Source: a virus
Virus record (IMG/VR): IMGVR_UViG_3300042469_001506
Coordinates: 1-20,808 of that record
Strand: one strand, 5' to 3'
DNA length: 20,808 nucleotides
Position 1 is the first letter of the stretch; each line of letters begins with the position of its first letter. The notes beneath the pieces are model-generated. The model was not told where the DNA came from, made no database searches, and saw nothing but the letters and a program-made list of their open reading frames with translations. Position numbers and translations under genes: made by a program. Below, in pieces: positions 1,710 through 20,760 of the stretch.

Positions 1710-2330
1710 ATGCCAGGACCATTAGATTTTACGGATAATAGTGTATCGTCAACGTACAATAGGCTTGTACAGACGGATGGCGCCGGAAATTATTTTAATG
1801 GACTCGGAGATCCGCTAATGATAAGCGGAGCACAAGGCGATCAAGGAGACCAAGGAGCACAAGGAGACCAAGGAGCACAAGGAGACCAAGGAGCACAAGG
1901 TGCTCAAGGAGCACAAGGAGCACAAGGAGCACAAGGTGCTCAAGGTAACCAAGGAGCACAAGGAGACCAAGGAGCACAAGGAGCACAAGGTAACCAGGGA
2001 GCATCAGGATCAACGCTTCCTAGTGTACAAACAGTAACTTCAGCACCAACAGTAACGCCAACGGCTTCCGATAACATAGTAGTTATAAATGCACAAGCAT
2101 CAGGTCTTACCCTTGCCAATCCTACTGGAGTTTGGGTCGACGGTCAGTCCTTGATTATTAGAATTGAAGATAACGGTGTTGCACGAGCTATTGGATACGG
2201 AGCAAATTACAGGGCAGTTGGTGTTACCCGACCTACAATAACCACTGCAGGTAAGGTGACTTACTTAGGAATACTTTATAACTCTAATGATACAAGATGG
2301 GATATTATAGGAGTAACAACCGAATTTTAA
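1710..2330 (+). CDS. Collagen-like phage fibre protein with C-terminal globular domain (206 aa)
   Basis: Residues 1-39 form a non-repetitive attachment region. Residues about 40-102 are some 21 Gly-X-Y triplets, nearly all GAQ, GDQ or GNQ with Gln at the third position and no proline. Residues about 103-206 form a globular tip containing VWVDGQSLIIRIEDNGVARA and ending in DDTRW-like NDTRWDIIGVTTEF. Such collagenous stalks trimerise in phage fibres and carry a C-terminal tip. I recall similar C-terminal domains from phage tail-fibre or receptor-binding proteins. The start is preceded by AATAAG and no Shine-Dalgarno site, and the next gene begins 3 nt after the stop. Likely role: a side-fibre or adhesin subunit exposed on the virion. 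Confidence is high for the collagen architecture and moderate for the receptor role. Confidence 0.85.
   Translation: MPGPLDFTDNSVSSTYNRLVQTDGAGNYFNGLGDPLMISGAQGDQGDQGAQGDQGAQGDQGAQGAQGAQGAQGAQGAQGNQGAQGDQGAQGAQGNQGASGSTLPSVQTVTSAPTVTPTASDNIVVINAQASGLTLANPTGVWVDGQSLIIRIEDNGVARAIGYGANYRAVGVTRPTITTAGKVTYLGILYNSNDTRWDIIGVTTEF
1827..2007 (+). repeat. Short tandem repeat encoding GAQ/GDQ collagen triplets
   Basis: A 9-nt coding unit, GGAGCACAA or GGAGACCAA, is repeated about 20 times with few synonymous changes. The 18-nt unit GGAGACCAAGGAGCACAA appears three times in succession near 1846-1899. The tract is open to length change by slippage or recombination, in steps that keep the reading frame. 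Confidence 0.8.
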
Positions 2331-2333
2331 TCT

Positions 2334-3758
2334 ATGTATAGAGACGTGATTACTTTCATGGGAAGACAACGTGCCTTTGTTATTGAAGTCAAGACGGATA
2401 ATGTTGGCACTTCAACATCAAGTCAGTTCACTATACCAACTACCGGTGGAGCATATAACTATTCTGTTACAACACAAGAACATAATTTGTCAGGTCTGAC
2501 CGGAAGTACCACACTTACATTTTCTACGCCTGGTACATATCAGATCGAGATTCGCGGCGTCTTTTCAAGGATATTCTTCAATAATCTAGGAGACCGACTT
2601 AAATTACTCAGAGTTGTTCAATGGGGCGATATTTCTTGGGTAAGTTTTGTAAATGCCTTTAACGGTTGTTCTAACATGGATGTGACTGCGAGTGATACAC
2701 CAAGATTATCTGGCGTCGTAACTTTACAATCGTGCTTTGTAGGATGTAGTTCGCTTATTAATGCTAATGGAAGCATAGGATCTTGGAATACGACCACGAT
2801 CACCAATATGGCAACAGTATTTAATAATGCAACTCAATTTAATCAAAATCTTGGTGCCTGGAATGTGTCGTCTGTATTGTTCTTTTCAGCTATGTTTCAA
2901 GGAGCTACTAATTTCAATAATGGCGGTAGTTCAGATATTAATAATTGGAGTCTCCGAACTACAGGAACGATTGATATGTCTAGTATATTTAGGTCTACCT
3001 CATTCAATCAACCAATCGGTAGTTGGACAACATCAGCAGTAACAAACATGGCCGGCATGTTCTTTGGATGCGTCACGTTCAATCAAGCAATCGGTAGTTG
3101 GAATACAGCAGCGGTTCAAAATATGTCTCAGGTGTTTTTTAATAATACATCTTTTAATCAAGATATAAGTGGTTGGAATACTTCTGCTGTAAAAAATATG
3201 ACACAGATGTTTAGTTCCGCTTCTTCTTTCAATCAGCCGATTGGAACTTGGAATACGTCAGCCGTCACAACTATGTTCCTTATGTTCCAATCGGCAACGT
3301 CATTTAATCAAGACATTAGTTCTTGGGACACTTCAAGCGTAACGAATATGCAATTTATGTTTAATAGCGCAATCGCTTTTAATCAGAATATAAGCTCTTG
3401 GAATGTTTCAGCAGTTACCACATTTGGTCAGATATTCCAAGGGGCTACTGCATTTAATCAAAACCTTTCTGCTTGGACTCTAAAACTTACTGGAATTACT
3501 AACATGGATAGTTTCTTCAGAAGTTCTGGTATGTCAACTGCAAATTATACAGATACACTAGTAGGTTGGGCCAATTATGTCTTTAATAATTCCAGTCCAT
3601 ATAGTCTAGCACTCACAGTTCAGACATCCAGAACCTTCCAAAATTCAAGATCTGGCGGTGCAAATTTTGCAAATGCAGGTGCTGCTAGAACATATTTAAC
3701 AACCGCCACTCCTACTGGAGCAGGTTGGACAATCACAGGAGATACAGTTATCGCATAA
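2334..3758 (+). CDS. BspA-like (DUF285) 25-residue-repeat surface protein (474 aa)
   Basis: Residues 1-110 resemble the N-terminal part of BspA/DUF285 proteins ([24 protein letters not shown], then QWGDISW). From about residue 140 to 400 there are about nine imperfect 25-residue units of the form FNQ-x-I-x-x-WNTSAVTNMxxMF. They include [32 protein letters not shown] and FNQDISSW. This is the leucine-rich-repeat-like solenoid used by bacterial surface adhesins. The C-terminal 70 residues are Asn/Thr/Ala-rich and end in [13 protein letters not shown]. No signal peptide is visible, which fits a virion component rather than a secreted host protein. It lies between two collagen-like fibre genes, so receptor binding is likely. 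The family call is strong; the role is inferred. Confidence 0.88.
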
Positions 3759-4026: not shown

Positions 4027-5295
4027 ATGGCAATTTCCTACTTATATCCTACAATAGATTTTTCGACAGTAGATTATATTAATATACCAAACGGCGCATA
4101 TCTTATTGCATTCGATGCAAATAATTCTGATCTCCTATCTAAGATCGATAACTTAGGTAACATCACAGTAGTAGAAGGAGGAGGTGGCGGAGCCGGTCCA
4201 CAGGGACCTCAGGGTGCACAGGGAGCGGCAGGCTCACAGGGATTACAAGGCTCACAGGGTTCTGCTGGCTCTCAAGGTTCACAGGGAACCGCAGGTAGTC
4301 AGGGAGCGCAAGGCTCAGCTGGCTCTCAAGGAGCACAAGGAAACCAAGGAGCACAAGGAGCGGCTGGGGCTCAAGGCAATCAGGGAACCGCAGGTAGCCA
4401 AGGAGCGCAAGGCTCAGCTGGCTCGCAAGGAGCACAAGGAGCGGCTGGAGCCCAAGGTAATCAGGGAACCACAGGTAGCCAGGGAGCGCAAGGCTTTCAA
4501 GGAACAACAGGTACACAAGGCCAAAACGGTATATCAATTTCATATTATAAATATAACGCAAGAACAAATTCACAAACACCGCCGCCTAGCAATTCACAAA
4601 TTATGTGGAATAGTGCAACGCAAATAAGTTCAACTATATTATATGTCTCACACTTAACAAGAGATAGTATAGATATTGATGTCTTCTTAGCATTAATTAA
4701 TTCTGGTGATACTTTAATTATTCAAGATGAAAATAATTCTAATAATTATCAAAATTGGACAGTAAACGGCACACCTACGATTATACCTAATGATTATGTT
4801 TCTATACCCGTTACATATGTGACTGGTGGATATTCATTTAGTAATGGACACGATATAATACTAGTTCCTTTATCTATTGGTATAGAAGGACCACAGGGTC
4901 CTCAAGGTGCACAAGGAGCTCAAGGTTCAGCTGGATCTCAGGGTTCACAGGGTGCACAAGGAGCTGTCGGAGCACAGGGAGACCAAGGTGCAGCAGGAAG
5001 CCAAGGATCACAGGGAGATCAGGGTGCACAAGGAACACAAGGAGATCAGGGTGCACAAGGATCAGCCGGTTTGCAAGGCTCTCAGGGAGATCAGGGAGTA
5101 GCTGGTGCGCAAGGAACCCAAGGATCGCAAGGATCAGCAGGATCGCAGGGGCCACAAGGAACCCAAGGATCACAAGGTGACCAAGGAGCCACTGGAGCTG
5201 GAGCGCAAGGCGATCAAGGAGATCAAGGAGACCAAGGTGCTCCAGGAGGCGAAGGAAATATAAGCAAGCTTTTTAATTATTATAATTTTGCATAA
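4027..5295 (+). CDS. Long collagen-like fibre protein with two collagen stalks (422 aa)
   Basis: Residues 1-50 are a non-collagenous head ([20 protein letters not shown]), followed by a flexible GGGGGAG linker. Collagen stalk 1 spans about residues 57-168 and stalk 2 about 288-409. Between them is a globular domain at about 169-287, rich in Asn, Ser, Ile and Tyr. The triplets are mostly GAQ, GSQ, GNQ, GDQ, GAA and GSA, with Gln dominating the third position. The protein ends only 13 residues after the second stalk ([12 protein letters not shown]), so it lacks a large C-terminal tip. The tip may be supplied by another protein, or the gene may have lost one. The start is preceded by ACATAAG and no Shine-Dalgarno site, and a candidate late promoter lies about 45 nt upstream. 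Likely a side fibre or tail-associated stalk. Confidence 0.85.
4284..4500 (+). repeat. Near-identical DNA repeats in the first collagen stalk
   Basis: A unit starting GGGAACC(G/A)CAGGTAG and continuing into AGGGAGCGCAAGGC occurs from 4284, 4383 and 4464. The steps are 99 and 81 nt, both whole numbers of triplet codons. The first two copies stay alike for about 60 nt. This points to recent in-frame duplication within the stalk. Confidence 0.75.
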
Positions 5296-14340: not shown

Positions 14341-14672
14341 TCTAGTGTGTAGAAGTTAGTTAGTGCCTTTTGGGTTATTTTCATCTGCTCTCCTTCCACA
14401 AGTATGTATTCTTGTGCAATAAGAGTCTTTATTTTTTTAACTAGGATTTGCTTAAAGGTTTCATCCTTTAGTCTATCTCCAAAAACATATTTTAAAGAGT
14501 TAGAGGTAAATTTAAAACTATCTAACGAAGCGGCTTTTCCCTTGGCCTGAATTACCTTATTTAGATATTGTAGAATATCAAACAGGGAAGAAAGCTCGTC
14601 GTGCAGCCTATCTTCATTATGAACTAAGAGATAGTACTTGATTGGTAGATCAGAGCGAAGCTTCAGAATCAT
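14337..14672 (-). CDS. Small winged-helix-like protein between uvsX and gene 41 (111 aa)
   Basis: The protein is mostly helical. Its C-terminal half (KQILVKKIKTLIAQEYILVE, then GEQMKITQKALTNFY) reads like the helix-turn-helix plus wing of a winged-helix domain. It overlaps the end of uvsX by 23 nt, the largest overlap in this block, and ends 4 nt inside the helicase start. In T4 the order is uvsX, gene 40, gene 41, and gp40 is of similar size, so this is the positional counterpart of gene 40. I cannot confirm homology by eye. A DNA-binding accessory role in replication is equally possible. Confidence 0.65.
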   Translation of the reverse strand: MILKLRSDLPIKYYLLVHNEDRLHDELSSLFDILQYLNKVIQAKGKAASLDSFKFTSNSLKYVFGDRLKDETFKQILVKKIKTLIAQEYILVEGEQMKITQKALTNFYTLE

Positions 14673-15849
14673 CGTTTAGTTCTCCTAATTCTTCATTTTC
14701 TAATAAATCGATTTCGGCTTGTGTTTCAGGAAACTTGAAGGTCGGTTTAATTATTTTTTCATCGAGTTCATGTAGCACAGTATCCGTAAAGAGTCGAGCT
14801 GAAAAAAATTCTCTAACCGGGACCTCGTCTCCATTGTGACGAATAATATAGTTTTTTGCCTGTATACTTGGTTTAACATACCAAACCACGTCTTCTACTT
14901 CAAATTTATGACACTTTGTTTGGTCTTCAGGTTTAAGCTTTGCAAATTCCTTTTCAGTTAATTTAGAACCGCGAACAACACCGCAGTTTTCCCAATTAAC
15001 AAATTGTTCAAGACCAACATATTGATTCATGCCCTTGTGAAAAGAAATATGAAATTCAATATCGATTGGCTTGGCCAGACGATTTTTTCTGGTCTTTGAG
15101 CGAACAATAATTCCAGTAGTTGTCTTGTTTTCATCACGCAGTGTGCCTTTGCTTAACATTAAAATGATTGATGCCGAGAACTCTGGACCTCCTCCGCCAG
15201 ACATGCCCTTTGGAGTATATTGATCCATCGAGGCGTAAGTATGGTTCGTGAAAATAAATGGCACCTTAAGATTAGAGAGGTCAAGTGTAAATGATTTGAA
15301 GAGGGCACGCAATTCTTTGGACCTCAATCCCATATCGGCTGCATTCTTACCAGCATCCATGTCACGTTTACTCTTATCAGTATCAAGCATTCCAACTGAA
15401 TCGACAAAGATTGCTGCTTTCATGCCTGGATTCTCCTTCATCGTATCGATAAAATCGTTGATAAAGAATTTAACATCGCTGATAAGCCCCATTCGTAGAT
15501 ATTTTAGCTTATCAAGGTCGACTCCAAACTTTATGTAATCGGAACGATCGATTGCGCCTTCAGTGTCGATGTAGAAAACAAAATAATTGTTCTTTTGTAG
15601 TTCGCGAACGGCATTAAGACACAGGAATGTTTTTCCAGCGCCAGAATCGCCTGCAATACCGATACTTCGAGTATTAGGATATCCTCCAAAGACAGAGCCC
15701 GACATTTGGGCATTGAGCAAGTAGTTACCTGTCGGAATAAACTCATCAATATCGGAAAATCCCATTAGGGAGACCTTTGTCTTGAGTTTCTTCTCTAGGA
15801 GGTCATTGAATTTATTGAATGCAGAGAGTGCATCTTTTGTATTTGCCAT
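14650..15849 (-). CDS. uvsX: UvsX recombinase (RecA/Rad51-like, 399 aa)
   Basis: This recombinase forms filaments on single-stranded DNA and carries out strand exchange for recombination-dependent replication and repair. Walker A GDSGAGKT is at 67-74. The catalytic Glu lies in YIDTEGAIDR (93-102), Walker B AAIFVDS at 145-151, and the DNA-binding L1/L2 region includes FTNHTYASMDQYTPKGMSGG (200-219). The C-terminus is acidic (LENEELGELNDDSEASL), as in many RecA-family proteins. T4 UvsX is about the same length. The gene starts after a 48-nt gap holding a small hairpin and an A+T-rich leader, so it may have its own promoter. Confidence 0.96.
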   Translation of the reverse strand: MANTKDALSAFNKFNDLLEKKLKTKVSLMGFSDIDEFIPTGNYLLNAQMSGSVFGGYPNTRSIGIAGDSGAGKTFLCLNAVRELQKNNYFVFYIDTEGAIDRSDYIKFGVDLDKLKYLRMGLISDVKFFINDFIDTMKENPGMKAAIFVDSVGMLDTDKSKRDMDAGKNAADMGLRSKELRALFKSFTLDLSNLKVPFIFTNHTYASMDQYTPKGMSGGGGPEFSASIILMLSKGTLRDENKTTTGIIVRSKTRKNRLAKPIDIEFHISFHKGMNQYVGLEQFVNWENCGVVRGSKLTEKEFAKLKPEDQTKCHKFEVEDVVWYVKPSIQAKNYIIRHNGDEVPVREFFSARLFTDTVLHELDEKIIKPTFKFPETQAEIDLLENEELGELNDDSEASL

Positions 15850-17361: not shown

Positions 17362-17658
17362 TTATTTTTTATTTTTTTTGATGATTTCGTCTGCGATACT
17401 CGATAGGTCGACTTGAGGTCGCTCTTTAAGGAGGAGCTCAATCTCTTCACGAGTTTTGGTAATTAGGTCAGCAAGTTGTGCGTCGTCTGCATCAGTTGCA
17501 TTCAGGACTTTAAAATCTATATCAGTCAGGCCCTGTGCTCTATATGTAAGCACGTGATATTCTTCTCCAAGCTTGTAATCAAGGTCCTTGTATACTTGTC
17601 CAATCGAGTCTGGATCTGCATTCGGCGGAAAGCCGACAATAAATATTGGTTTTGCCAT
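17362..17658 (-). CDS. Small unknown protein directly after the polymerase fragment (98 aa)
   Basis: The product begins MAKPIFIVGFPPNADPDSIG, a beta strand with a Gly-Pro loop, and ends in a charged helix (LIKTREEIELL-like, then VDLSSIADEIIKKNKK). The start lies one base after the polymerase fragment stop (TAA-G-ATG), so the two are almost certainly co-translated. It shows no polymerase motif, so it is not the missing half of gp43. A small partner of the split polymerase is conceivable from position alone. Function unknown. Confidence 0.65.
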   Translation of the reverse strand: MAKPIFIVGFPPNADPDSIGQVYKDLDYKLGEEYHVLTYRAQGLTDIDFKVLNATDADDAQLADLITKTREEIELLLKERPQVDLSSIADEIIKKNKK

Positions 17659-17659
17659 C

Positions 17660-19084
17660 TTAGTTTAAATTTTTTAGGGCTTTTATTTTACCTTGAGTGG
17701 AAATACGTTCGTCATAGAGTCGAGTAAGGATAATTCGAGCAACAGAATCTGATTCGCTAGAGAAGAGAGTATCGTTCTTTGTGTGAATTTCAGTGCCTTT
17801 GGCCTTGACAGTATCTTTTTTACCAAGATATGTATCGGGAGAAATATTGAACTGGATTTGGATATTTGGATACATTGAGGAAAAGTCATAACAGGAAACA
17901 TAGTTATAGTAACCAGGTACTGGCTTTTTCACGTAGGCACCTTCATAGGTACCATCAGAGTCATTTGATGCACCCCAAGGTAATTTCATCATCTTTAGGT
18001 TCTTATTTAAGAATTCACGGCACATCAAGATTTCGGCAATATACACCGGACTAAATACTTTGTTTACCTCGACCTGGGCAACGTTTGCAATCGAATAGGC
18101 AACGTCTAGTAGAGAAAGCTTGTCCTCTATAAGCTTTACGAGTACAACATCGATCACGTTATATAGGGTAAAGAGATAGGTGTCTTTTTGAAACGAAAGA
18201 AAAGTAGGATATTTGTGCTTTAATTTTGCTACTCCTAATACTAGGTTGGCAATGTAATCAAGTTTGTAGTTTTCGACAACTTTATATGGCTTAAGCTTTT
18301 CAAAAACCTGCATATAGTCTAGAACGCCTAAGTGAGCTGGAATCTTGTTCTTTGAGATAAGACTGCGAGAAGGTAGGTTCAGGGTAGAATCAACTTTCAT
18401 GTTTTTAGCACGATTCATCAAGTATTTCCAGTCAAATTCAGTTACGTTCCATCCGGTTACAAAAGAAAACTTGGGCACAATATTCTTAAAGTAGAACTCG
18501 AGCAATTCAGTTTCAGTAGAGAAGAACTTGTACTTGATCTTGAATTCCTGCTGAAAGAGAGCAGCGTCTTGCGGACGAAGCGGAGTGGTCTTTCTAAAGT
18601 ATTCATTGACTTCTTTTTCCATTCGAACTATATCATCTGAAGAGAGACCTTCAGGCTTACCATCATCATGTAGTATAGAGAGAATATAGGTAATATTGTC
18701 TTCATTACAGAAGGAGATAAGACCGACTGGCATCCTGGCACGTTCTGGATCGGGAAAAGAGTCGTCAATTAGCTTGATCTCAATATCAAGATAGGTTTTC
18801 TTTGGAATGTGGTCAAAGCTATAGATCATTTCAAGCTCATCGGAGGTAAGTTTTTCCTGAATAAGCTCTTGTACTCTAAACTGATTGATATATCGACCTT
18901 CTGACCTGCTCTTTTTTGTATATTTTCCATCCCAATTCTTGGTTGCAGTAGGAGTAGCCGACTCTACCCAATTGTAGAGTTCATGATCAAGTAATCTCTT
19001 CTTAATAAAAGAGATTCTACCTTCTGGATCGTAATAAGAGATGGTTAGCGTATTGTCGTCTAGTACTTCTGCTCCGATTATCAT
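17660..19084 (-). CDS. 43A: DNA polymerase gp43, N-terminal part only (exonuclease plus motif A; 474 aa)
   Basis: This is a family B DNA polymerase of T4 gp43 type, ending about half way. The 3'-5' exonuclease is complete: motif I YLDIEIKL (Asp100, Glu102), motif II GWNVTEFDWKYL (211-222), motif III YNVID (Tyr308, Asp312). EGAYVKKPVPGYY (381-393) and motif A CYDFSSMYPN (Asp400) open the palm. The protein stops at KIKALKNLN, in the fingers, before motif B (K-x3-N-S-x-Y-G) and motif C (D-T-D). T4 gp43 is about 900 residues. The next gene starts one base later and is unrelated, so this is a clean gene end rather than a frameshift. A second protein from elsewhere must supply motifs B and C. Split gene 43 is known in some T4-related Aeromonas phages. 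Confidence 0.92.
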   Translation of the reverse strand: MIIGAEVLDDNTLTISYYDPEGRISFIKKRLLDHELYNWVESATPTATKNWDGKYTKKSRSEGRYINQFRVQELIQEKLTSDELEMIYSFDHIPKKTYLDIEIKLIDDSFPDPERARMPVGLISFCNEDNITYILSILHDDGKPEGLSSDDIVRMEKEVNEYFRKTTPLRPQDAALFQQEFKIKYKFFSTETELLEFYFKNIVPKFSFVTGWNVTEFDWKYLMNRAKNMKVDSTLNLPSRSLISKNKIPAHLGVLDYMQVFEKLKPYKVVENYKLDYIANLVLGVAKLKHKYPTFLSFQKDTYLFTLYNVIDVVLVKLIEDKLSLLDVAYSIANVAQVEVNKVFSPVYIAEILMCREFLNKNLKMMKLPWGASNDSDGTYEGAYVKKPVPGYYNYVSCYDFSSMYPNIQIQFNISPDTYLGKKDTVKAKGTEIHTKNDTLFSSESDSVARIILTRLYDERISTQGKIKALKNLN

Positions 19085-19320
19085 ATTTTAGGTTTAAAAA
19101 GTTCATTAATATTTCCACATGCTGCACAGGCAATAACTTGCAAGGGCACAATTGAGTCTTGTGAGCCGCCTGTCATGAATTTAGATACTTTTTTTAGCAT
19201 CATACGTTCTTCAAAAACTTGACCGTTGCACTTTTCACACTCAATATAAGGTGCATCTGCTAGGTGGATGTTAAGTTGCGATTGGCCTCTATCTGGGCCA
19301 CCTCCTGGGATTATGTCCAT
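19081..19320 (-). CDS. Small zinc-ribbon protein (79 aa)
   Basis: Two CxxC knuckles, ECEKC (Cys28, Cys31) and ACAAC (Cys65, Cys68), frame about 33 residues of beta structure (FEERMMLKKVSKFMTGGSQD). This is a typical zinc ribbon that would bind one zinc ion. I recall similar small proteins near replication genes of marine T4-like phages, with no function attached. The start overlaps the last 10 nt of the homing endonuclease gene, and the stop overlaps the polymerase start by 4 nt (ATGA), so it is coupled to the polymerase. It may bind nucleic acid or a replication partner. Confidence 0.75.
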   Translation of the reverse strand: MDIIPGGGPDRGQSQLNIHLADAPYIECEKCNGQVFEERMMLKKVSKFMTGGSQDSIVPLQVIACAACGNINELFKPKI

Positions 19321-20240
19321 TCTTTATTGGTTTTTTTTTTTATTATAGTTATATCAGAATCAACGAATGTGGTTTTTATATAAGACGTTCCTTTTTTCCA
19401 TGTAAATCCTTTATATTTGGTTTTATTTTTAATTGCTCTGAATATCATTTGTTTTGAAAGATTCAAAACATTTTTTATTTGATTGATCGATTCCCATTCA
19501 TGTATTAACCGACACTCGTCATATTGAAGAATAGTATATCGTATTGAATTAGTATGATTTTTCTTCCTAGATGATGTATCTTTTTTTCCTAGAGGTCTTC
19601 CTACTTTTTTATATTCAATGTGATGACACGATGTTGTGTAACTCCAACGGTACCCTCCACAGCTATTCCTTTTTCCATTACACGCAGAAGAAAGATTACC
19701 TCTACTTTTTGCATTATTTAAGGAAAAATACGCATGCTCTAAACTCTGAAAGGTATTTAAAAGATCTCCAGTCATTGAAAATTGATATACCGGCCGCGAT
19801 GAATTTTTTGAACTTAATGAAATAGCAATGACGGAAAGAGGCATTTTTTCTTTTTTTGATTTTTCAATATTTGTTATGATATGTATTTTTTCAGGAGAGA
19901 GACCTTTCATCAATTTCTTTATATTTTCTTTTTCAGAATTTTGTCTATTCTTCCAATATTCTTTTAAAACTTTTTGAGACCAGCCTCTTCCTCCATCTTG
20001 TATGTTGTATAACGTGTGTCCTACTTCTTTAAAGTACGATATCCAATAAACTTCACGAGCATCTAATTCTTCTTCCGATTTAACTTCTTCTAAAATTTCT
20101 TTTAGAAAATTAATTTTACTATATTTTCGTATAGCCTTACATATTAATTTTCCAGATCCAAAATAATTGGGATCATTTGTTTTAGACTGGCCTATATAAA
20201 TTTTACCATTGCATAAATTTGTAACCTTGTAAATTATCAT
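19311..20240 (-). CDS. GIY-YIG homing endonuclease with NUMOD-like DNA-binding repeats (309 aa)
   Basis: The N-terminal GIY-YIG nuclease (about 1-85) shows IYKVTNLCNGKIYIGQS (3-19), NYFGSGKLI, and the catalytic Glu in AREVYWISYF (61-70), then YNIQDGG. The C-terminal part has two NUMOD1-like modules: RPVYQFSMTGDLLNTFQSLE through GGYRWSY (149-201), and ILQYDECRLIHEWESINQIK through YKGFTWKK (237-283). A basic linker (VGRPLGKKDTSSRKKN) joins them. It is a free-standing mobile gene between dUTPase and the zinc-ribbon gene, very A+T-rich compared with its neighbours. A perfect inverted repeat lies directly before its start, and a run of 11 A residues lies near its 3' end. Its likely effect is spread into phages lacking it by cutting the empty site. 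Confidence 0.9.
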   Translation of the reverse strand: MIIYKVTNLCNGKIYIGQSKTNDPNYFGSGKLICKAIRKYSKINFLKEILEEVKSEEELDAREVYWISYFKEVGHTLYNIQDGGRGWSQKVLKEYWKNRQNSEKENIKKLMKGLSPEKIHIITNIEKSKKEKMPLSVIAISLSSKNSSRPVYQFSMTGDLLNTFQSLEHAYFSLNNAKSRGNLSSACNGKRNSCGGYRWSYTTSCHHIEYKKVGRPLGKKDTSSRKKNHTNSIRYTILQYDECRLIHEWESINQIKNVLNLSKQMIFRAIKNKTKYKGFTWKKGTSYIKTTFVDSDITIIKKKTNKEWT

Positions 20241-20292
20241 TTTTCATTATTTTTAATTATATATCAAAGTACATAATTAAAAATAATGAAAA
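20241..20292. repeat. Perfect 20-bp inverted repeat filling the dUTPase-endonuclease gap
   Basis: The arms TTTTCATTATTTTTAATTAT (20241-20260) and its exact complement (20273-20292) flank a 12-nt loop. The 52 bases run exactly from the base after the endonuclease ATG (20240) to the base before the dUTPase stop (20293). In the message, the 3' arm ends directly at the AUG, so folding would hide the A-rich initiation region. Phage homing endonucleases are known to be held back by such hairpins. With one G/C pair per arm it is not a typical terminator. Confidence 0.85.
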
Positions 20293-20760
20293 TTAATATC
20301 CATTTTTTTGCCTATCGCGATTGTGTTTGTTCTTGCTCATGTACATGTTATACATTTCCTGTGGAGTCATGCCGATTGAGATTGCATAATTCATGAAAAA
20401 ATGGAGCATATCAACAATCTCAAACTTACACTCAAGTTGATCCGCCGAAGAAAGATCGGAAAATTTCATAAAGCCGTATCGGGTAAAGTCTTTTTTCCAA
20501 TACTTCCAGATCGCGTTTCCGCTGCCGTCTTTGACTCCTCCAAGGGCATCAGTTGCCTCATGGATCTCGTCGACCAATGCGTGTGAGTTAACATGCCAGA
20601 AATTCATTATTTCTCTAAGGCTCATGTTTTCAAAGTTCCAGCCGTAAACTGTTGCTTGTGTGTCTTTTTGAAGTGACATTATGTCACCTAGTGTGTCTTT
20701 GCTTTTGGAATAGAGGTCATCTATCGGTAGGTCCGAACACTGATTATCGAAGTTTGCCAT
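20293..20760 (-). CDS. Dimeric dUTPase (dUTPase_2 / MazG-like all-alpha NTP pyrophosphatase, 155 aa)
   Basis: This enzyme hydrolyses dUTP (and perhaps dCTP or dUDP) to the monophosphate, keeping uracil out of DNA and feeding dUMP or dCMP to the TS-family enzyme. The all-helical order and motifs fit the dimeric family: ALVDEIHEATDALGG (61-75) gives the first acidic metal site, WKYWKKDF follows at 85-92, FEIVDMLHFFMNYAISIGM (113-131) gives the second, and KNKHNRDRQKNGY (143-155) is the C-terminal K-x2-N-x2-RQ-x2-GY signature. Residues 1-45 are an added polar N-terminal segment. It is the first gene of this run visible at the right edge, with a TATAAT 18 nt upstream of its ATG. Confidence 0.85.
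   Translation of the reverse strand: MANFDNQCSDLPIDDLYSKSKDTLGDIMSLQKDTQATVYGWNFENMSLREIMNFWHVNSHALVDEIHEATDALGGVKDGSGNAIWKYWKKDFTRYGFMKFSDLSSADQLECKFEIVDMLHFFMNYAISIGMTPQEMYNMYMSKNKHNRDRQKNGY

What the first reader, a model, noticed from the sequence alone, without database searches (positions are those of the whole stretch)
17660..19084. DNA polymerase split between motif A and motif B, with no second half nearby
The fragment has all three exonuclease motifs and the first catalytic Asp (DFSSMYPN), then ends at KIKALKNLN in the fingers. Motif B and the DTD of motif C are absent from every reading frame I examined in the 20.8 kb. The next gene begins one base after the stop, so this is a settled gene boundary, not a sequencing error. 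The active site must be completed in trans by a protein encoded elsewhere, with one catalytic Asp on each chain. Known precedents are split gene 43 in Aeromonas T4-like phages and, as I recall, a two-gene polymerase in Rhodothermus phage RM378. In the Aeromonas phages the halves lie close together; here at least 17 kb separates this fragment from any other half on the downstream side.
Basis: partly seen in the sequence, partly recalled or inferred. Interest (0 to 1): 0.75.

Follow-up and report, generated by a model that had tools for sequence, protein, structure and literature searches.

The report
Phage DNA polymerase in two genes
This uncultured phage carries only the first half of its replicative DNA polymerase here; in related phages the second half sits in another gene 38-67 kb away, so two separate proteins almost certainly join to build one active site.

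Summary
ORF 17660-19084 (-) is the N-terminal half of a T4/RB69-type family B polymerase. It has all exonuclease residues, motif A (Asp400 = RB69 Asp411) and the first finger helix, and it stops at the fingertip (about RB69 residue 496). Motifs B and C are absent from all six frames of the window, a 20.8 kb viral fragment. I found the missing half in relatives: in 14 of 25 long related IMG/VR records a separate ORF starts across the fingertip (about RB69 542) and carries motif B, motif C and thumb. It lies 38-67 kb downstream, beside a primase gene. Eight large relatives hold no full-length PolB, PolA or Pol III alpha. All 158 IMG/VR relatives examined are split at the same place; many distant ones keep the halves 1-6 kb apart, often around ribonucleotide reductase genes. 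In the tree the split unites this lineage with Lak, 635 kb megaphages and Bacteroidota jumbo phages; Aeromonas phages and Atu_ph07 split independently at the same spot. No intein or intron was found, so the halves most likely assemble non-covalently, as reported for Aeromonas phage 25. New variant of a known kind. The partner from this very phage was not seen.

The parts
17660..19084 (-). PolB N-terminal half (PolN): NTD, 3'-5' exonuclease, first palm segment with motif A, first finger helix
18779..18787 (-). Exo I residues D100-I-E102 (RB69 D114, E116)
18431..18433 (-). Exo II residue D218 (RB69 D222)
18149..18151 (-). Exo III residue D312 (RB69 D327)
17885..17887 (-). Motif A catalytic D400 (RB69 D411) in CYDFSSMYPN
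17663..17743 (-). First finger helix (residues 448-473) and break point near RB69 residue 496
17656..17662 (-). Stop TAA, one base, then ATG of the next gene
17362..17658 (-). 98-aa ORF directly after PolN, found in the nearer relatives only, no family
14650..15849 (-). UvsX-like recombinase; in phages with the halves close together it follows the C half, here it follows PolN and small ORFs
20293..20760 (-). ORF that is the usual upstream neighbour of PolN in this lineage

Best explanation
The ORF is the N-terminal subunit of a two-chain replicative DNA polymerase of family B. The C-terminal subunit (motif B Lys, motif C Asp-Thr-Asp, second palm segment, thumb) is encoded by a distant gene, about 50-70 kb downstream on the same strand by analogy with the nearest relatives. 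The two chains meet at the palm and at the two finger helices, whose tip loop is where the chain is cut. They form one active site non-covalently, with Asp400 on one chain and the DTD pair on the other. The cut arose once in the ancestor of this phage group, with the halves close together around intervening genes; in the window's lineage the C half later moved next to a primase gene. Shown: the two ORFs in relatives, their complementarity, conservation, co-occurrence and tree. Inferred: non-covalent assembly and activity, the order of the evolutionary steps, and the location of the C half in this particular genome.
For: Second half found in relatives as a separate ORF. Pfam PF00136 is covered up to about 145 by one ORF and from about 137 on by the other, with nothing else, in eight large records. 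No Pol III alpha or PolA there. Catalytic residues are invariant in both halves: D100, E102, D218, D312, D400 in the N half; K19, N23, Y26, G27, D97, T98, D99 in the C half. The same break occurs in 158 loci with no full-length case. N and C distance matrices correlate at r = 0.98 over 76 taxa. Strong purifying selection (NG86 dN/dS about 0.02, dS near saturation). AlphaFold models of each half match RB69 gp43 and are poor where the other half should pack: N residues 369-441 mostly below pLDDT 50, C residues 1-50 at 51-58. Aeromonas phage 25 gp43A and gp43B, cut at the same place, co-purify and are active (review PMC2988022).
Against: The C half of this very phage was not observed. No complex was modelled, because the structure tool does not take joined chains. 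Part of the N-C distance correlation is shared ancestry. Low pLDDT at the interface may partly reflect shallow alignments. 11 of 25 long records lack the C half, although in none does the contig reach beyond about 47 kb downstream of PolN.
Confidence: 0.9

Rival explanations
1. The halves are covalently joined after synthesis, by a split intein or by a trans-spliced group I intron.
For: Split inteins join PolB pieces at motif C in MIJ3 (PMC6892783), and intein halves occur there in Lak, PTm1 and LR756500. Aeromonas 25 has an intron in gene 43B (PMC2993671).
Against: The window N half ends in the finger helix with no intein residues, and the next gene starts one base after the stop. C halves of the lineage start directly at the second finger helix. 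No intein family in either half. No Rfam intron near either gene. In Lak and PTm1 the intein halves flank motif C but not the fingertip break.
Confidence: 0.03
2. The N half is a stand-alone exonuclease or regulatory protein, and replication is done by another polymerase.
For: The exonuclease domain is complete and is the best-folded part of the model.
Against: Motif A Asp400 and neighbouring motif residues are kept invariant, which an exonuclease does not need. No other polymerase family was found in eight large relatives. The C half co-occurs and co-varies with it.
Confidence: 0.04
3. Truncated pseudogene or assembly/sequencing error.
For: None found.
Against: Same ORF end in 78 related loci and the same break in 80 more distant ones; a 99.8% identical copy in another contig; dN/dS about 0.02.
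Confidence: 0.01

Closest known systems
Aeromonas phages 25 and 44RR split gene 43 (43A/43B)
   Same: T4-type PolB cut at the same fingertip site (phrog_262 497/497); two chains reported to co-purify and be active (PMC2988022)
   Different: Halves are adjacent (about 140 bp apart in 44RR); independent origin in the tree; a homing endonuclease gene and an intron are involved in phage 25
Lak megaphages, 635-642 kb uncultured megaphages (LR745206, LR756502, LR756504), LR756500, Tenacibaculum phage PTm1, Chryseobacterium phage MA9V-2
   Same: Same fingertip break and same clade (100/99 support)
   Different: Distances range from a few kb (PTm1, MA9V-2) and 10 kb (LR756500) to about 100-280 kb; Lak, PTm1 and LR756500 have a further split-intein break at motif C. 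I found no paper describing the fingertip break in these phages
Moraphages (PMC12619734) and MA9V-1 (PMC10537231) annotations
   Same: Two polymerase families are listed per genome (VOG00275 and VOG00710; ORF135 and ORF138), as two halves would be
   Different: Neither paper calls them halves in the passages I searched; whether the window belongs to the moraphages was not tested
MIJ3 / PA5oct PolB with split intein (PMC6892783)
   Same: Family B polymerase of a jumbo phage in two genes
   Different: Broken at motif C (PA5oct phrog_262 about 583/581) and rejoined by a split intein
Rhodothermus phage RM378
   Same: PolB in two distant genes (22.1 and 80.1 kb)
   Different: Broken between exonuclease and polymerase domains (336/379), so both catalytic Asp residues are on one chain
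Split PolB of Methanobacteriales and Nanoarchaeum (Kelman 1999; Choi 2006, cited in PMC4104785)
   Same: Functional PolB from two genes, non-adjacent in Nanoarchaeum
   Different: Archaeal PolB3; break sites not compared here; intein-mediated joining in Nanoarchaeum
PHROGs phrog_2062 and phrog_1918
   Same: phrog_2062 (502 aa) matches this N half; phrog_1918 (382 aa) matches the C half
   Different: Database labels say only 'DNA polymerase', not that they are two halves

Membership tests
T4/RB69 gp43-type family B DNA polymerase | Exo I-III carboxylates | tested here: met
   D100, E102, D218, D312 align with RB69 D114, E116, D222, D327
T4/RB69 gp43-type family B DNA polymerase | Motif A Asp | tested here: met
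   D400 = RB69 D411
T4/RB69 gp43-type family B DNA polymerase | Motif B Lys and motif C DTD on the same chain | tested here: not met
   Absent from the window; on a separate ORF in relatives
T4/RB69 gp43-type family B DNA polymerase | Fold | tested here: met
   Both AlphaFold halves hit RB69 gp43 first (E 3e-20 and 6e-12); TM-scores are modest (0.60 and 0.49 by query) as each half is partly unfolded alone
Aeromonas-type fingertip-split gp43 (43A/43B) | Break between the finger helices | tested here: met
   Window ends near RB69 496, 44RR near 512
Aeromonas-type fingertip-split gp43 (43A/43B) | Halves adjacent | tested here: not met
   38-67 kb apart in relatives
Aeromonas-type fingertip-split gp43 (43A/43B) | Two chains form an active enzyme | not testable with these tools
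   Needs biochemistry
Fractured gene with split intein | Intein halves at the break | tested here: not met
   None in either half
Megaphage/Bacteroidota-jumbo split PolB clade | Monophyly of the split sequences | tested here: met
   27 split rows on one side of a 100/99 branch, no intact row among them; several long branches within, root not inferred

The most novel reading that the evidence does not exclude
A fingertip-split replicative polymerase is the ancestral state of a very large group of jumbo and mega phages, which keep it as an obligate two-subunit replicase whose genes have drifted up to hundreds of kilobases apart. Separate expression of the subunits may be used to control replication.
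Probability: 0.35. Interest if true: 0.75.

Novelty: new variant of a known kind. Interest (0 to 1): 0.58.

Why it matters
Replicative polymerases are normally one chain because the metal-binding aspartates must sit in one active site. Here a whole phage group, including some of the largest known phages, has kept the active site divided between two genes, in many cases far apart. It shows that the finger tip is a repeatedly used break point (at least three origins in the tree), makes two-subunit assembly testable with many natural pairs, and explains why databases list two different 'DNA polymerases' for one enzyme in such phages.

Tried and rejected
Second half in the window: none. Intein or intron joining: none found. 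Another polymerase family as the real replicase: none in eight large relatives. RM378 as the same architecture: rejected, different break. Homing endonuclease as the cause of the split: the GIY-YIG gene upstream is a recent insertion missing in a 99.6% identical relative, so it cannot explain an ancient split. My reading of the ORF of about 250 aa between the halves in close-halves phages as a sliding clamp rests on eye only: no Pfam, PHROG or PDB match. Two-chain modelling was not possible with the structure tool.

Full report
Observation. The ORF at 17660-19084 (-) is complete: ATG, 474 codons, TAA at 17662-17660, one base, then the next ATG. It matches the PolB exonuclease domain and only positions 22-139 of 453 of DNA_pol_B. 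Exonuclease residues D100, E102, D218, D312 and motif A D400 align with RB69 D114, E116, D222, D327 and D411; the chain ends near RB69 residue 496, inside the fingers. A profile of the C-terminal half finds nothing significant in the six frames of the window. The window is a 20,808-base IMG/VR virus record, so absence here says nothing by itself about the genome.

Not an artefact. 78 related loci were fetched, 36-100% identical; all end at the same place. A second contig (L002) carries the gene at 99.8% identity. The gene is under strong purifying selection (NG86 dN/dS about 0.02, with dS near saturation).

The second half. A search of 25 large related records with phrog_262 found in all 25 the N half (ending near profile position 497) and in 14 a separate ORF starting near 497 and ending near 840. 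In these 14 the gap between halves is about 38-67 kb and both are on one strand (for example 43 kb in the 270-271 kb records G014, G015, G016 and G024, whose coordinates fit circular permutations of one genome; 52 kb in G004; 53 kb in G010; 67 kb in G002). A further record (G029, 253 kb) shows 45 kb. The 11 records without it have at most about 47 kb of sequence downstream of the N half, so the gene may lie off the contig. The C half begins at M...IKxLDLKQNAIKILINSxYGAFGN (motif B) and carries YTDTDS (motif C); its motif B Lys19 falls on RB69 K560, so its start is near RB69 542. Its neighbour downstream is a primase-like gene. In eight large records Pfam DNA_pol_B is covered by exactly these two ORFs, and no Pol III alpha or PolA is present.

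Co-conservation. Motif residues of both halves are invariant across 29 N halves and 28 C halves. Over 76 taxa the N and C distance matrices correlate at r = 0.98 (none of 1000 permutations as high), which is expected for one enzyme but is also partly shared ancestry. AlphaFold models of each half hit RB69 gp43 first. In each the region that should pack against the missing half is poorly predicted: N residues 369-441, mostly below pLDDT 50, holding motif A, and C residues 1-50, holding motif B. I read this as neither half being able to complete the palm alone; shallow alignments may contribute.

How widespread. All have the N half ending at profile position about 500; 50 also hold a C half starting at about 502, 1-6 kb downstream on the same strand (median 4.1 kb); none is full-length. 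In the examples read, the usual order is N half - nrdB - nrdA - an ORF of about 250 aa - C half - UvsX. In the window lineage the order is N half - four small ORFs - UvsX - gp41-like helicase - gp47 - gp46, with the C half gone. Among named records the same break is in Lak-A2 and Lak-C1, LR745206, LR756502, LR756504, LR756500, MA9V-2 and PTm1, as well as in Aeromonas 25 and 44RR and in Atu_ph07; T4, RB69, KVP40, Aeh1, S-PM2, HTVC008M, Cr30, phiW-14 and SCTP-2 are intact there.

Tree. In a 40-row tree of the N region, 27 split sequences (window lineage, Lak, the 635-642 kb megaphages, LR756500, MA9V-2, PTm1, L078) are one side of a 100/99 branch, with no intact sequence among them; Aeromonas and Atu_ph07 are split inside intact groups. 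Three changes are the minimum. Some rows are long (PTm1, MA9V-2), so the inner order is unsure, and the root is not inferred. The simplest reading is one ancient split with the halves close together, followed by relocation of the C half in several lineages.

Mechanism. Splicing is unlikely at this joint: no intein sequence at either end, the next gene begins one base after the N-half stop, and no intron family is found. In Lak, PTm1 and LR756500 intein halves flank the motif C break but not the fingertip break. Non-covalent assembly is the remaining option and has a precedent: Aeromonas phage 25 gp43A and gp43B co-purify and polymerize DNA (review PMC2988022; the original Petrov 2010 paper was not read). 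The fingers are two antiparallel helices joined at an exposed tip (general knowledge of RB69 gp43), so a cut there leaves the helices able to pair.

Literature. Eight library searches and reading found split gene 43 in Aeromonas phages, a split-intein PolB in MIJ3, two polymerase VOGs in moraphages (PMC12619734), two polymerase ORFs in MA9V-1 (PMC10537231) and gp276/gp277 in Atu_ph07 (PMC6102473), but no statement that these jumbo or mega phages carry one polymerase cut at the fingertip. Subscription papers are mostly missing from that library, so priority is not certain. PHROGs already holds the halves as separate families, phrog_2062 and phrog_1918.

Verdict. Observation confirmed and interpretation supported. 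New variant of a known kind: a fingertip-split gp43 whose halves are encoded tens of kilobases apart, as a fixed trait of a large phage group.

Noticed in passing
window 19311-20240 (insertion about 19344-20291): A free-standing GIY-YIG/NUMOD-type homing endonuclease gene sits in a roughly 948 bp insertion that is missing from the 99.6% identical locus L002, so it is a recent mobile insertion just upstream of the polymerase gene.
   Followed up: partly
L164:1484-3652: A mini-intein with Ser at both junctions is inserted at motif C (YTDTD|S) of the C half.
   Followed up: partly
L173/L201 (Lak-A2), L309-L312 (PTm1), L171/L198/L203 (LR756500): PolB is in three pieces: the fingertip break without intein and a second break at motif C with intein halves.
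   Followed up: partly
L307 (Agrobacterium phage Atu_ph07): The polymerase gene is two adjacent ORFs cut at the fingertip, independently of the window lineage; probably the gp276/gp277 published as two DNA polymerases.
   Followed up: partly
L112:3041-4474 and L107:1525-3147: C halves of this lineage carry about 100-180 extra residues after the thumb, with no family match; C halves of the close-halves phages are about 400 aa and lack them.
   Followed up: no
L336:9398-13253, L348, L313: In the wider group the two polymerase halves flank nrdB, nrdA and an ORF of about 250 aa that looks clamp-like by eye but has no database match.
   Followed up: partly
window 1710-2330 and 4027-5295: Two ORFs with collagen-like GXX repeats (GAQGDQ...), near a repeat protein at 2334-3758 with SFNQ...WNTSAVTNM repeats; probably tail fibre or surface proteins.
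   Followed up: no
G002, G014, G022, G023 and others: The large relatives carry a third, separate ORF of about 250 aa matching only the exonuclease part of phrog_262.
   Followed up: no
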